A DNA stretch of 64,000 nt from an uncultured Flavobacteriales bacterium (lineage in GTDB: Bacteria > Bacteroidota > Bacteroidia > Flavobacteriales > CAJXXR01), in NCBI GenBank assembly GCA_913063375.1, contig CAJXXR010000014.1, positions 1 to 64,000 of the forward strand, written 5' to 3'. This document shows, piece after piece, positions 45,207 to 64,000 of this stretch. Each line of letters begins with the position of its first letter. The first letter of the stretch is position 1. Below the pieces are notes generated by a model. That model was not told the origin of the DNA. It saw only the letters and a list, made by a program, of their open reading frames with translations, and did no database searches. Both the position numbers and the translations under genes were made by a program.

Positions 45207-45854
45207 TTAATCAATTCCTCTTTTTTGTAATTCATCTCTAATTTTTGCAGCTTGTTCATAGTCTTCTTGACCAATGGCTGTATTAAGAAGATTGTAAAGT
45301 TCAGAATCTGAAACATTGCTGTAATCTGACTCCTGGGACGAAGAACCTTTATCTTCTTGTGCTTCTTCTTGAATTCTTCTTGCTACTTCTTCCAATTCAG
45401 ACATCTCACTCATTTCATCTTCTTCTGTGAAATCGGAAGGTTCTTCAAGGATAAGTCCAGTTTTATCAAGGATATCTTCGTACGTGAAGATAGGAACACC
45501 TAATCTTACAGCAATCGCAATTGCATCAGAGGTTCTTGAATCAATGGTTTGTTCCTTTCCTTCTGTTTCAAAGATAATGCTAGAAAAGAATACGCTGTCT
45601 TCTAGTTTGTGAATCAGAATTTCTTTGACTTCAATGGAGAAGTTACTGCAGAATGACACAAACAAGTCGTGGGTTAACGGTCTTGGTGGTTGGATATCTT
45701 GATCTAGAGCGATAGCAATAGATTGTGCTTCAAATGCACCAATAACGATAGGTACCCTTCTCTCTCCATTTACTTCGGCTAGAATAAGGGCATATGCTCC
45801 TGTTTGAGACTTGCTATAAGAAATAGCAGATATGACAAGTTGTACTTTATTCAT
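45207..45854 (-). CDS. Bifunctional-nuclease (BFN) family protein with UVR motif
   Basis: The 215-residue protein has an N-terminal BFN domain (DUF151) at about 1-135: ISAISYSKSQTGAYALIL, GERRVPIVIGAFEAQSIAIAL and DSRTSDAIAIAVRLGVPIFTYEDIL. An acidic linker follows, and residues 180-215 form a UVR motif (LYNLLNTAIGQEDYEQAAKIRDEL) like that of UvrB/UvrC and Clp adaptors. BFN proteins are reported nucleases in plants, but the bacterial role is uncertain. A hairpin and a folded leader candidate precede it. Confidence 0.88.
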   Translation of the reverse strand: MNKVQLVISAISYSKSQTGAYALILAEVNGERRVPIVIGAFEAQSIAIALDQDIQPPRPLTHDLFVSFCSNFSIEVKEILIHKLEDSVFFSSIIFETEGKEQTIDSRTSDAIAIAVRLGVPIFTYEDILDKTGLILEEPSDFTEEDEMSEMSELEEVARRIQEEAQEDKGSSSQESDYSNVSDSELYNLLNTAIGQEDYEQAAKIRDELQKRGID

Positions 45855-45871
45855 TGAAATTATAAAATAAA

Positions 45872-45901
45872 ATACCTGCTGTGCGTAATGACAGCAGGTA
45901 T
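45872..45901 (-). terminator. Hairpin between etfA and the BFN gene
   Basis: An 11-bp perfect stem (ATACCTGCTGT with ACAGCAGGTAT) with an 8-base loop is followed on the minus strand by TTTATTTTATAAT. It is probably a leaky terminator for etfBA or a leader hairpin of the BFN gene, whose start is 17 bp beyond. Confidence 0.55.
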
Positions 45902-45921
45902 ACCGTAATAGGTCTCAAAAT

Positions 45922-45974
45922 TTATAGTTGTTGGCTTTCGCCTACATGATGCCCGAGTCGGTCTTAGACTATAA
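45922..45974 (-). ncRNA. Candidate structured RNA element between etfA and the BFN gene
   Basis: On the minus strand the 53 bases are closed by a perfect 7-bp stem (TTATAGT with ACTATAA). Inside are a GGC-GAAA-GCC hairpin with a GNRA loop and a CCG-ACT-CGG hairpin. Three nested elements in a short non-coding stretch are more than the base composition suggests. It may be a leader element or part of the etfA 3' end. I cannot name a family. Confidence 0.35.
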
Positions 45975-45992
45975 AGTTAAGCTTTTTATTTT

Positions 45993-46955
45993 TTAATTGG
46001 CAGCTTTATACTTTTTAATTGCAGCGATAAGTTTTGGGACTACTTCGAAGGCATCACCAACGATACCGTAATCTGCAGCCTTAAAAAATGGTGCTTCAGC
46101 ATCAGAATTTATAACAACGATGTTTTTTGAAGCAGATACACCAGCAAGATGTTGAATTGCTCCTGAAATACCAATTGCGATATATAATTCTGGGTTAATT
46201 GCTAGTCCAGTTTGTCCAACGTGTTCTGAATGAGGTCTCCAACCCATGTCTGCAACGGGTTTAGAACAAGCTGTTCCTGCTCCAATAGCACTTGCTAGGT
46301 CTTCAATCATATTCCAGTTTTCTGGTCCTTTTAGTCCACGACCACCAGAAATTACTAATTCAGCTTCTGGTAATGGAATTTTACCTGTAGCTTTATCTAT
46401 AGAAATAGAACTTAGTCCTGAAGAAGCAGCGTTCATTGCTTTATCTTCTACTTGTGCTTCCGTTTTGCTCTCGTTTACACCAAATGAGTTTGGAGTAATT
46501 GCTAGGACTACTTTAGACGCTTGAGTAGAATAGTGTACAAATGCCTTGTTAGAGAATACCTTTCTCTTAATGGTAAGTGGAGAAAGTGATACCGGTAAGT
46601 CCAATACGTTGGTAATAAGTGCAGCGTCTGACTTGATGGCAATCATCGGTGCCATATTTTTACCATTGTTGGTGTTTGACACAACAATAGTTGTCGCATT
46701 CATTTCATTTGCAACGTCATTAATAAGACTTGCAAAAATTTGATTGTTAAATGCTTTAAAAGTTTCTCCTTTTATATGGTAAACTTTGGTTGCTCCATAG
46801 TTTGCTAAAACAGAAACATCATCACTAGCTTCTGTAGTGATAGCAATACAATCTTCTCCTTTCTGTTGGGCTAGTTGAGCAGCATAACTAACTGCTTCAT
46901 AAGATGCTTTTTTAAAACTACCTTCCCAATTTTCAACATATACTAATACTGACAT
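45993..46955 (-). CDS. etfA: Electron transfer flavoprotein subunit alpha
   Basis: ETF carries electrons from acyl-CoA and other dehydrogenases to the quinone pool. The alpha subunit is 320 residues from the start at 46955 (MSVLVYVENWEG); the frame extends upstream to 47009 but that part overlaps etfB. The FAD-binding C-terminal domain is clear: VISGGRGLKGPENWNMIEDLA, ACSKPVADMGWRPHSEHVGQTG and IAIGISGAIQHLAGVSAS, followed by NSDAEAPFFKAADYGIVGD. It lies 19 bp after etfB in the same unit. Confidence 0.96.
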   Translation of the reverse strand: MSVLVYVENWEGSFKKASYEAVSYAAQLAQQKGEDCIAITTEASDDVSVLANYGATKVYHIKGETFKAFNNQIFASLINDVANEMNATTIVVSNTNNGKNMAPMIAIKSDAALITNVLDLPVSLSPLTIKRKVFSNKAFVHYSTQASKVVLAITPNSFGVNESKTEAQVEDKAMNAASSGLSSISIDKATGKIPLPEAELVISGGRGLKGPENWNMIEDLASAIGAGTACSKPVADMGWRPHSEHVGQTGLAINPELYIAIGISGAIQHLAGVSASKNIVVINSDAEAPFFKAADYGIVGDAFEVVPKLIAAIKKYKAAN

Positions 46956-51611: not shown

Positions 51612-51648
51612 AAAGCGGAAAGGTGTAACTCACCTTTCCGCTTTTTTT
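51612..51648 (+). terminator. Terminator after the PorE-like gene
   Basis: The stem AAAGCGGAAAGGTG with CACCTTTCCGCTTT has a TAACT loop and ends in TTTTTTT. Confidence 0.92.
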
Positions 51649-59909: not shown

Positions 59910-60969
59910 AATTGAGAGATGTTTTCCAAATTGATACCTTTTCTATTTTTCCTTTTAATTGATGGGTTCCTATTGAAGTATGCTTTAAAAGAATGTCTTT
60001 ATTCAATCTATTTTTAAGCCTATCGGAGATGAGTAAGTTAGCCTGATAGGTAGCGCATAATGATTGTATGCGAGAAGTTGTGTTTAGGATATCTCCGTGA
60101 TAACAGATTTCACTTTTCAATTCTCCAACTTCCGTTACAGTAACTTGGCCGATATGTGCACTTGCCTTAAATACGGGAACAACCCCATATTGCTCCATAT
60201 AATAGTCGGAATTACTATTTATTTTTGCCTGGAATGCATAAAATGCATGAATAACGTTATTATTTTTAAGTCCTTTTATAGGGTTCCAATTTAAGACAAC
60301 TTCATCACCTACATATTGATAAACTTCTGCTGAGAAATCGGCAACAATGGCTACGTCTTTAAAGCAATCTCTAAGAAGTTGACTGTACTTTATATTACCT
60401 ATTTCTTCTGCTATTCTTGTAGAGGACGTCAAATCTACGAACATAAAAATACGCTCTATCTGTCTAGGTTTGTAAAATTTTCCAATCATCAATTTCCATA
60501 GATTTCCAGATCCTAGCTTTCTATCCATCTCCCGCATAAACTCAATTAGGAAACTCACCATGAACCCATAAATTATGAAGACATGATTCCCTGTTGTGAA
60601 ATCTTCAAAGCTTAGTTGAATTTGTAAAAGTTTGTTTAAACTGAAGATCGCTAGATAGGTTATTATACTAAGAGCGGATAAGTTGAGAAGGGTTATTAAT
60701 ATGAAAAATAAACCTAGTGATAGTACATTACGAAAATACTTGGCTATATATAAATCAATGATGGAAAAAATGGTTCCTGCAGATATTCCTAAAACTATGA
60801 TTTGAAAAAATATGGTACGGGCGGCATTTATTTTGGTGATTCTATTTTGTTTAATAAGGTCTGCAATTTCATCGTTCCCTATATCATGTCTTAGGAATAT
60901 GAAAAATCCAATAGCTACAGACCATGCTAGAATATAAAATAATAAGATTCTTAAATTCTTTCTTTTCAT
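59902..60969 (-). CDS. Membrane-anchored class III nucleotide cyclase
   Basis: The 355-residue protein has an N-terminal membrane part with four or five helices (about 8-27, 52-76, 80-110, 129-145) and a class III cyclase domain from about 168. The metal ligands Asp179 (FMFVDLTSST) and Asp222 (VGDEVVLNW) are present, as are Asn296 and Arg300 of the transition-state pair (GDILNTTSR). Compared with mycobacterial Rv1625c, the adenine-selecting Lys296 and Asp365 positions are Gln218 and Cys289, so ATP preference cannot be assumed. The family is common in Bacteroidota, mostly untested. It is first in a four-gene unit. Confidence 0.87.
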   Translation of the reverse strand: MKRKNLRILLFYILAWSVAIGFFIFLRHDIGNDEIADLIKQNRITKINAARTIFFQIIVLGISAGTIFSIIDLYIAKYFRNVLSLGLFFILITLLNLSALSIITYLAIFSLNKLLQIQLSFEDFTTGNHVFIIYGFMVSFLIEFMREMDRKLGSGNLWKLMIGKFYKPRQIERIFMFVDLTSSTRIAEEIGNIKYSQLLRDCFKDVAIVADFSAEVYQYVGDEVVLNWNPIKGLKNNNVIHAFYAFQAKINSNSDYYMEQYGVVPVFKASAHIGQVTVTEVGELKSEICYHGDILNTTSRIQSLCATYQANLLISDRLKNRLNKDILLKHTSIGTHQLKGKIEKVSIWKTSLNYD

Positions 60970-61003
60970 TTGTATTGCAAATGGTGATTGATGAAACGTA
61001 TTA

Positions 61004-61031
61004 TAAAGATAATCGCTTTAAATAAAATCAA
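61004..61031 (-). promoter_or_regulatory. Candidate promoter of the cyclase operon
   Basis: On the minus strand TTG (61029-61031) is separated by 17 bp from TATCTTTA (61004-61011), one mismatch from TAnnTTTG. It lies 34 bp before the cyclase start. Confidence 0.45.
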
Positions 61032-61083
61032 GCTTAGAAAATGAAGATTTCTAAACCAGAAAGCTAAGGAGATATTAGGGTAC

Positions 61084-61109
61084 AAAAAAAGCCTCCGAGG
61101 AGGCTTTTT
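61084..61109 (-). terminator. Terminator after asnS
   Basis: AAAAAGCCTC pairs with GAGGCTTTTT around a CGAG loop, 9 bp past the asnS stop on the minus strand, with a T run. Confidence 0.85.
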
Positions 61110-61118
61110 AATCGAGTT

Positions 61119-62561
61119 TTAGAATTCTGCATTTTGTGGTGTTCTTGGAAAAGGAATTACATCACGTATATTTTGCATACCCGTAACGAATAATACCATT
61201 CTTTCAAATCCAAGTCCAAATCCACTATGTGGAGCAGTACCAAATTTTCTTGTTTCTAAATACCACCATAGGTCTTCTTTAGGAACATCCATCTCTTCCA
61301 TTCGTTTGACTAATTTATCGTAGTCTTCCTCTCTTTGAGCACCTCCAATAATTTCACCAATTCCAGGGAATAAAATATCCATAGCTCTAACGGTCTTCCC
61401 ATCTTCCCCCATCTTCATATAGAAGGCTTTAATGTCTTTTGGGTAATCTGTTAGAATTACAGGGCAGTTGAATTCTTTTTCTACCAAATACCTTTCATGT
61501 TCAGATTGTAGATCTGCACCCCAACCGTCAATGATGTATTTGAATTTCTTTTTCTTATTGGGCTTTGAATTCCTTAGGATATCAATAGCCTCCGTATAGG
61601 TTAAGCGTTTGAAAGGGTTATCTGCAACGAATTGAAGTTTTTCAATTAGTGTCATTGTTTGACGGTCTGCAGCCTTTTTGCTTTTATCCTCGTTGATTAG
61701 ACGTTGATTTAAGAATGCTAAATCATCCGCACAATTTTTCAGAATGTCTGAACATAGGTGTCTCAACATTTCTTCTGCAAGATCCATGTTGTCATCAAGG
61801 TCAGCAAATGCTACCTCAGGTTCTATCATCCAAAACTCTGCAAGGTGTCTTGTGGTATTGGAATTTTCCGCACGGAACGTTGGTCCAAAGGTGTAAATTT
61901 TACCTAGGGCCATTGCAGCCAATTCACCTTCCAATTGTCCAGAAACCGTTAAATTTGCTTCCTTAGCAAAAAAGTCTTGGTCGTAATCTACAGATCCATC
62001 CTCCTTTTTTGGTACGTTGTTCAAATCTAAATTCGTAACCTTAAAAGTTTCTCCAGCACCTTCGGCGTCACTTGCCGTGATAATTGGAGTATGGATATTA
62101 TAGAAACCTTTTTCATGGAAGAACTGGTGAACAGCGAATGTCAGTTGATGACGAATTCTAAATATTGCTCCAAAGGTATTTGTACGGAATCTTAAGTGCG
62201 CTTTTTCACGCAAAAACTCCATACTGTGTTTCTTCGGTTGAATAGGGTAGGCGTCAGCATCACAATCACCTAAGATTTCAATCCCTTGGGCTTTTATTTC
62301 AACCTTTTGGCCTTGACCTTGCGATTCTACAACCTCTCCAGTAACTGCTATACAAGCACCTGTCGTAACACGGTTTAATAATTCTTCACTAAAGTCTCCT
62401 TCAGCTACTACTTGAATATTATTAATCGTAGATCCATCATTAAGACTAATGAAGGATACACTTTTACCTTGTCGATGGGTACGAACCCATGCCTTTACTA
62501 ATATCGTAGATCCAACTAGATCGTTGGAAATAATTTGCTGAATATTTGTAGCTTTCATCAC
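61119..62561 (-). CDS. asnS: Asparaginyl-tRNA synthetase
   Basis: A class IIb synthetase that charges tRNA-Asn with asparagine. The 480 residues have an N-terminal OB anticodon-binding domain ([25 protein letters not shown]) and a class II core: motif 2 in [25 protein letters not shown], the AsnRS-specific [20 protein letters not shown] and motif 3 in [29 protein letters not shown]. AspRS is ruled out by the shorter length and by [13 protein letters not shown]. The ATGs at 62561 and 62558 are both possible starts. It has its own promoter box and terminator. Confidence 0.97.
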
Positions 62562-62592
62562 TAGAGTATTAAAGCATTGTGAAAAATGAGTA

Positions 62593-62600
62593 CAAAAATA
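62593..62600 (-). promoter_or_regulatory. Candidate -7 box for asnS
   Basis: TATTTTTG on the minus strand fits TAnnTTTG and lies 31 bp before the asnS start. Confidence 0.5.
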
Positions 62601-62670
62601 GTCAATTCCAATTATTTCTGTTTAATAGAAGTTGGCTTTTCTTGAAGCAAATACCCTAATTTTTACATCT

Positions 62671-63729
62671 TTACTCCTGAAAGGCAGGATTGGTGATAAA
62701 TGTGGTGTCTGAAAGTGTGTGTAGAAAGGCTAAAAGATTGGCTTTTGCATCCTCTGTTAATAGTAATCCAGTTTCTGGATTTTTCATCAATGGGTCTAAG
62801 GTTGAGCTTGTATGCCCACCGGTATTGTAAAAGTCAATCACCTCTTCTAAGGTTTTAAAACGACCATCGTGCATATAAGGAGCTGAAAAAGCAATATTTC
62901 TAAGTGTTGGAGTCTTAAATTTCGCTTTATCCATTGGGTTTTGAGTAATTTCATAGAGACCAAGATCAGTCCAGTCTTCCTCTTTGTCTATTCCGTTATT
63001 GTGGAATAAATTGTCTGTTCCAAGTGGGAAGCCGTGACAATGGAAACAATCCGCTCCATTAGGATTCCCATCTATAGGTCCTTCAATATTAAACATGTCT
63101 AGTCCTGCAAATTCAGCAGCAGTTAAATTAACTTCACCTCTAAGGTATTTGTCGAATTTCGAATTACCAGAAATAAGTGTTCTTTCAAATTGAGCAATAG
63201 CTTTCGCTATAAGAATAGAATCTACCGTCTCAGTACCAAAGGCTTTTATAAATAGTGGGGGATATTGTGCATCATTTTGGATTTTCTCCACGGCATTTGG
63301 CCAAGTTTCATGCATTTCTATCGGATTTACAACTGGACCAAGCGCTTGGTCTTCTAGACTTTTTGCTCTCCCATCCCAAAAGAAATTATTTCCCCATAAT
63401 GCATTTACTATAGGCATGGAACTTCTATTTCCACTGATACCATCAATTCCTGTACTTACAGCCCCTGTATCTGAGAAGGCAAATGCTGGTTGATGACAAC
63501 TCCCACAAGATTGGCTGTTGTCTCCACTCAATTGCTTTTCATAAAACAATTTTTTCCCCAGTTTGACACCTTCAGCAGTCATAGGATTGTCCTCTGGAAT
63601 TTCAAATTGAGGAAAATTCATTGGTAAATCTATCGTATAGGGAGTGGCTGATGTGTCATCTGTGTCTCTATTGCAGGCAATAAAAAGACCTAAAAGAAGA
63701 AAAAAGGAAAAGGTTGATAAGGTTCTCAT
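62671..63729 (-). CDS. Di-haem cytochrome c peroxidase lipoprotein
   Basis: This 352-residue envelope protein has a lipobox (LGLFIAC, Cys19) and two c-type haem sites: CGSCH at residues 75-79 and CFHCH at 228-232. It follows the CcpA/MauG family, which reduces hydrogen peroxide with electrons from cytochromes: GKKLFYEKQLSGDNSQSC, WGNNFFWDGRAKSLEDQALGP, TPTLRNIAFSAPYMHDGRFKTLEEVIDFYN. It is probably attached to the periplasmic or outer membrane. It has its own promoter box (63754-63761); no terminator is clear. Confidence 0.94.
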   Translation of the reverse strand: MRTLSTFSFFLLLGLFIACNRDTDDTSATPYTIDLPMNFPQFEIPEDNPMTAEGVKLGKKLFYEKQLSGDNSQSCGSCHQPAFAFSDTGAVSTGIDGISGNRSSMPIVNALWGNNFFWDGRAKSLEDQALGPVVNPIEMHETWPNAVEKIQNDAQYPPLFIKAFGTETVDSILIAKAIAQFERTLISGNSKFDKYLRGEVNLTAAEFAGLDMFNIEGPIDGNPNGADCFHCHGFPLGTDNLFHNNGIDKEEDWTDLGLYEITQNPMDKAKFKTPTLRNIAFSAPYMHDGRFKTLEEVIDFYNTGGHTSSTLDPLMKNPETGLLLTEDAKANLLAFLHTLSDTTFITNPAFQE

Positions 63730-63753
63730 CTGGTATGTTAATTATTAATCTAC

Positions 63754-63761
63754 CAAATATA
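63754..63761 (-). promoter_or_regulatory. Candidate -7 box for the cytochrome c peroxidase gene
   Basis: TATATTTG on the minus strand fits TAnnTTTG and lies 25 bp before the start at 63729. Confidence 0.5.
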
Positions 63762-63818
63762 CTGAAACCTATTCAATAAAGATTATGATGTACAGCATAG
63801 CAATTGATACAGAATGGT

Positions 63819-64000
63819 CTATTCTGCATCATGAAGATCAAACATAATTTTATCTTGTTGCCTTAGTAGGTAGGTGCTCATAAGAACTTCTGATCCAATA
63901 GCAGCGGCATCTGTAGATTCATGAGGGAGTAATGCCGTATAGCAAGTAATACCATCATAGAGACCTTTGATGAATAGTCCGAAATATTTACTGCCTTTAA
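63819..64000 (-). CDS. C-terminal end of an unrecognised protein, cut by the window edge
   Basis: On the minus strand an open frame enters from the right edge and gives 59 residues before the stop (TAG, 63819-63821). It reads KGSKYFGLFIKGLYDGI, then TALLPHESTDAAAIGSE and LRQQDKIMFDLHDAE. The codon use looks coding and the position upstream of the peroxidase gene fits a real gene end. I do not recognise a family from so short a piece. Confidence 0.6.
   Translation of the reverse strand, partial: KGSKYFGLFIKGLYDGITCYTALLPHESTDAAAIGSEVLMSTYLLRQQDKIMFDLHDAE

What the first reader, a model, noticed from the sequence alone, without database searches (positions are those of the whole stretch)
45922..45974. 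Possible structured RNA between etfA and the BFN gene
The 53-base stretch closes with a 7-bp stem and contains a GGC-GAAA-GCC hairpin and a CCG-ACT-CGG hairpin, followed 21 bases later on the minus strand by an 11-bp hairpin near the BFN start. Together they look like a leader with a possible terminator. Bacteroidota carry several short conserved RNA motifs, such as Flavo-1, but I cannot match this by memory.
Basis: seen in the sequence. Interest (0 to 1): 0.5.

Follow-up and report, generated by a model that had tools for sequence, protein, structure and literature searches.

The report
Ordinary terminator after etfA, unconserved spacer
The stretch is a short spacer with no counterpart in the relatives examined, followed by what looks like a normal stop signal for transcription; nothing found here points to a new regulatory RNA.

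Summary
The 53-nt "RNA" (45922-45974) folds only weakly better than shuffles (z about -1.7), and 23 of 27 other gaps in the window hold a 53-nt stretch that folds better. It matches no Rfam family, Flavo-1 included. The only other held genome of the same family has etfA and BFN in the same order with a 62-nt gap that carries a similar terminator hairpin but nothing like the 53 nt. In 30 of 44 loci with etfA upstream of BFN the gap is 30 nt or less. What stands out is the second hairpin: 11 bp plus a U-rich tract at 45901-45862 (z -5.3). It has the anatomy of an ordinary intrinsic terminator for etfBA. It is probably leaky, with BFN made by read-through, since no exact sigma-A promoter box lies in the gap. 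No homologue of the 53 nt was found and no same-genus genome is held, so covariation could not be tested. A genus-specific RNA is not excluded, but nothing supports it.

The parts
45872..45901 (-). 11-bp hairpin (loop 8), stem of the putative intrinsic terminator of etfBA
   Evidence: terminator scan; z -5.27; counterpart in same-family L026
45862..45871 (-). U-rich tract TTTATTTTAT directly after the stem
   Evidence: z -1.66 / -1.76; absent from L026 and from the other syntenic gaps
45902..45921 (-). 20-nt spacer between the 53 nt and the terminator hairpin
   Evidence: ORF; start placed at MSVLVYVENW; syntenic in 44 relatives' loci
45207..45854 (-).
   Evidence: ORF; relatives

Best explanation
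The gap holds an ordinary intrinsic (Rho-independent type) terminator at the 3' end of the etfB-etfA transcript, preceded by an unconserved 3' untranslated spacer that happens to contain small hairpins. RNA polymerase leaving etfA transcribes the spacer, the 11-bp hairpin forms, and the U-rich tract releases the transcript. The hairpin ends 17 nt before the BFN start codon and the gap has no exact sigma-A promoter box, so BFN is most likely expressed by polymerases that read through (partial termination). Shown: the anatomy, the excess stability of the 11-bp hairpin, a like hairpin in the same-family genome, the absence of the 53 nt there. Inferred: termination itself, its leakiness, read-through expression of BFN.
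For: Hairpin plus U-rich tract on the transcribed strand; z -5.27; no fold that breaks the terminator costs less than 9.0 kcal/mol; L026 keeps a hairpin with the same core at the same place, 21 of 22 pair cells standard, one pair changed on both sides; 9 of the 14 relatives' gaps longer than 30 nt hold a terminator-like hairpin by scan; 53 nt near shuffled energy and without counterpart; two exact TAnnTTTG boxes upstream of etfB, none in 45840-46450; a class of transcripts from partial termination is described in F. psychrophilum (PMC9723704, passage).
Against: With two sequences the pair counts prove nothing: 237 of 500 shuffles do as well. The hairpin lies only 17 nt before BFN, odd for a terminator if BFN must be well expressed. 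5 of the 14 longer gaps show no terminator in the scan. One-mismatch promoter-like boxes do lie in the gap (45979, 45924, 45923), so a weak promoter is not excluded. The 91 nt ahead of the terminator fold slightly better than shuffles (z -1.81, 4.6%). No expression data.
Confidence: 0.85

Rival explanations
1. The 53 nt plus the terminator form a cis-regulatory leader (attenuator or riboswitch) of BFN: a folded sensor decides whether the terminator forms.
For: A hairpin-rich stretch directly ahead of a terminator that directly precedes a gene is the usual layout of such leaders (established knowledge); the firm GGC-GAAA-GCC hairpin; marginal energy of the 91 nt (z -1.81).
Against: Folds without the terminator stem are 9.0-16.1 kcal/mol worse, so no strong competing fold was found; no Rfam match; absent from the same-family gap; no exact sigma-A box from which a leader would start.
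Confidence: 0.04
2. The stretch and the terminator are the body and end of a small RNA cut from, or started near, the etfA 3' end.
For: A stable hairpin followed by a terminator is a common 3' end of small RNAs (established knowledge).
Against: No counterpart in relatives' gaps; no exact TAnnTTTG box in or just before it; no expression data.
Confidence: 0.08
3. The stretch is a copy of a dispersed repeat, such as Flavo-1 or another short interspersed element.
For: Flavo-1 is frequent in several relatives (16 of 60 genomes) and sits in this same gap, antisense, in L007.
Against: No Flavo-1 match in the window or the own genome (65 of 470 candidates scored, 150 of 461 scored); no second copy of the 138 nt in the own genome; AGGCGAAAGCCAA once exactly, two one-mismatch places against one for the reversed control. 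The genome is 83% complete.
Confidence: 0.02

Closest known systems
Intrinsic (Rho-independent) transcription terminator
   Same: Stable hairpin (11 bp, 5 G-C pairs) directly followed by a U-rich tract, downstream of a gene on the transcribed strand
   Different: Ends only 17 nt before the next co-directional gene; U tract interrupted by A; termination not measured
Flavo-1 RNA (RF01705)
   Same: A short RNA motif of Bacteroidota; found once in the same etfA-BFN gap of another genome, on the opposite strand (L007)
   Different: No match to the model in this gap and none found in this genome

Membership tests
Intrinsic terminator | stable hairpin beyond chance | tested here: met
   z -5.27, 0 of 200 shuffles
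Intrinsic terminator | U-rich tract directly after the stem | tested here: met
   TTTATTTTAT
Intrinsic terminator | position after a gene on its strand | tested here: met
   91 nt after the etfA stop, minus strand
Intrinsic terminator | transcripts end there | not testable with these tools
   needs Term-seq or 3'-end mapping
Flavo-1 (RF01705) | match to the Rfam model at its gathering score | tested here: not met
   no match in the window, none up to E 10 in 45700-46200; the model does ring in relatives
Any other described RNA family (Rfam 15) | match at gathering score | tested here: not met
   0 matches in the whole window
Riboswitch or attenuator leader | structure kept in relatives by compensating changes | tested here: inconclusive
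   no homologue of the 53 nt found in syntenic gaps, so no covariation can be counted; no same-genus genome held
Riboswitch or attenuator leader | alternative fold that competes with the terminator | tested here: not met
   best folds without the terminator stem are 9.0-16.1 kcal/mol worse; ligand or protein binding not considered

The most novel reading that the evidence does not exclude
A young, genus-specific RNA element that arose between etfA and its terminator and acts as a small 3'-end RNA or as a control of read-through into BFN.
Probability: 0.06. Interest if true: 0.3.

Novelty: already known. Interest (0 to 1): 0.06.

Why it matters
It matters little: it removes a candidate RNA and annotates a likely terminator. 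One mild point: etfA and BFN are nearly gapless in 30 of 44 loci examined, while some lineages, this one included, have a terminator-like hairpin between them, which would partly uncouple BFN from etfBA.

Tried and rejected
Rfam at gathering score and at E up to 10: no gathering match; the four weak matches are to an lncRNA region, two microRNA families and a snoRNA. Phage collection: no match. tRNA or tmRNA: none in the window.

Single-sequence covariance model R1 (two copies of the same 53 nt): besides its own locus it matched 1 of the 195 other genomes searched, G032, 26.5 bits, E 0.00114 for one genome, so about 0.2 expected over 196 (strict filters). That place (L060 1501-1552) does not align at the CCG hairpin, has two non-standard pairs in the outer stem and lies antisense inside a 173-aa ORF: taken as chance. 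In the 51 sources there were two further matches. L033, 20.3 bits, E 0.013, had already been chosen for DNA likeness; it breaks all three CCG pairs and two outer pairs and keeps the GGCGAAAGCC hairpin. L035 3406-3425, 13.0 bits, E 3, is partial and not in an etfA-BFN gap. Both taken as chance.

A decayed coding piece: one plus-strand frame is open for 22 codons across the 53 nt (LLAFAYMMPESVLDYKVKLFIF), and the ORF under the G032 match reads LLVLTYMM at that place. The own genome has a relative of that ORF on another contig (C8, 40% identity, no stop inside), but the 138-nt gap has no second match in the own genome. Not excluded, not supported.

Full report
What is there. The gap between the etfA stop (45993) and the BFN start (45854), both genes on the minus strand, is 138 nt.

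Is it more than chance? The 53 nt: z -1.66 with 16 of 200 shuffles as stable; z -1.76 and 6% of 1000; plus strand z -0.64. The 91 nt ahead of the terminator: z -1.81, 4.6% of 1000, marginal; the first 71 nt of the gap: z -1.30, 10%. Among 574 intergenic 53-nt windows, 21% score as low, and 23 of 27 other gaps of 60 nt or more have a window at least as low (gaps from a simple rule, ORFs of 80 aa or more, so some may be mis-set). A 7-bp inverted repeat of this span is found in 18% of shuffles. The three-way arrangement is not stable: outer stem 0.58-0.65 in the gap and 0.09-0.10 with flanking bases, CCG hairpin 0.35-0.42; the GGC hairpin is 0.99-1.0. The 11-bp hairpin is different: z -5.27, 0 of 200. 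Terminator-like hairpins of 14-17 bp occur elsewhere in the window, for example 54135-54098 and 51612-51644, 12859-12827 and 9387-9354, 30738-30707; 60001-64000 was not scanned.

Relatives. BFN was sought in 60 genomes, the own one included, 57 with a match. The family holds one other genome, G001. Named contigs gave 20 more loci. Of 49 relatives' loci with BFN (L002-L030, L035-L054), 44 have an etfA match upstream; 5 were dropped for want of one (L017, L035, L042, L053, L054; L042 begins near the contig end, in what looks like the end of etfA). L027 and L039 look like the same contig (same length and alignments), so the 44 hold at least one duplicate. The gap is 30 nt or less in 30 of 44 and larger in 14. 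A scan found a terminator-like hairpin in 9 of the 14: L002, L003, L004, L006, L007, L009, L019 (weak, in a 1102-nt gap), L022, L026. It found none in L010, L011, L015, L016, L018; by eye L016 has a longer-looped one. I saw nothing like the 53 nt in these gaps, and model R1 hits none of them. L026, the same-family genome, has a 62-nt gap that is mainly the terminator. Its hairpin pairs with the window's in 21 of 22 cells, with one pair changed on both sides; partners slid by 1-3 columns fall to 27-55% paired. With two sequences 237 of 500 shuffles do as well, so this is no statistical proof. The 138 nt in 395 genomes of the order gave, apart from itself, 3 genomes with matches of 28-32 nt; no BFN or etfA was found in the 3-kb stretches around them, L032-L034.

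Flavo-1. There is no match in the window and none was found in the own genome: one search scored 65 of 470 candidates under strict filters, one search scored 150 of 461. The 14 control genomes of both calls do not ring, so the positive control is itself: 16 of 60 genomes have it (14 over the cut-off), G001 of the same family with 7 places. In L007 a Flavo-1 lies in this same gap on the opposite strand (13 loci scanned). PMC9723704 (12 passages, section 15 part 1 and section 19 seen) reports that Flavo-1 places in F. psychrophilum gave no real clue to function. PMC2864571 (8 passages) lists Flavo-1 as a probable RNA, not cis-regulatory.

How it works. The best reading is an intrinsic terminator of etfBA with partial read-through into BFN. 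No exact TAnnTTTG box (the sigma-A -7 element in PMC9723704) lies on either strand in 45840-46450, against two upstream of etfB; on the minus strand three one-mismatch places fall in the gap, none with TTG at the right distance. PMC9723704 has a class of transcripts from partial termination. No fold without the terminator stem is closer than 9.0 kcal/mol to the best. That termination happens and leaks is inferred.

Limits. No same-genus genome is held, so a genus-specific RNA cannot be tested by covariation. The 29 relatives' loci share 45-57% BFN identity and the 20 share 33-50%; absence there says nothing about a younger element. The own genome is 83% complete.

Noticed in passing
L007 2163-2241 (+): A Flavo-1 RNA (RF01705, 64.6 bits) lies in the etfA-BFN gap of this genome, antisense to the two genes.
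   Followed up: partly
L002, L003, L004 (etfA-BFN gaps): A TATCTTTG sequence, matching the sigma-A box TAnnTTTG, lies inside the terminator-like hairpin between etfA and BFN in all three, so a promoter may overlap a terminator.
   Followed up: no
L019, 1102-nt gap between etfA and BFN: An unusually long gap with many irregular CTTTTTAA-like pieces; Tandem Repeats Finder reports no array.
   Followed up: partly
G003, G055: Flavo-1 reached all 65 scored candidates in these two genomes, so copy numbers there are lower bounds, while none was found in the window's genome.
   Followed up: no
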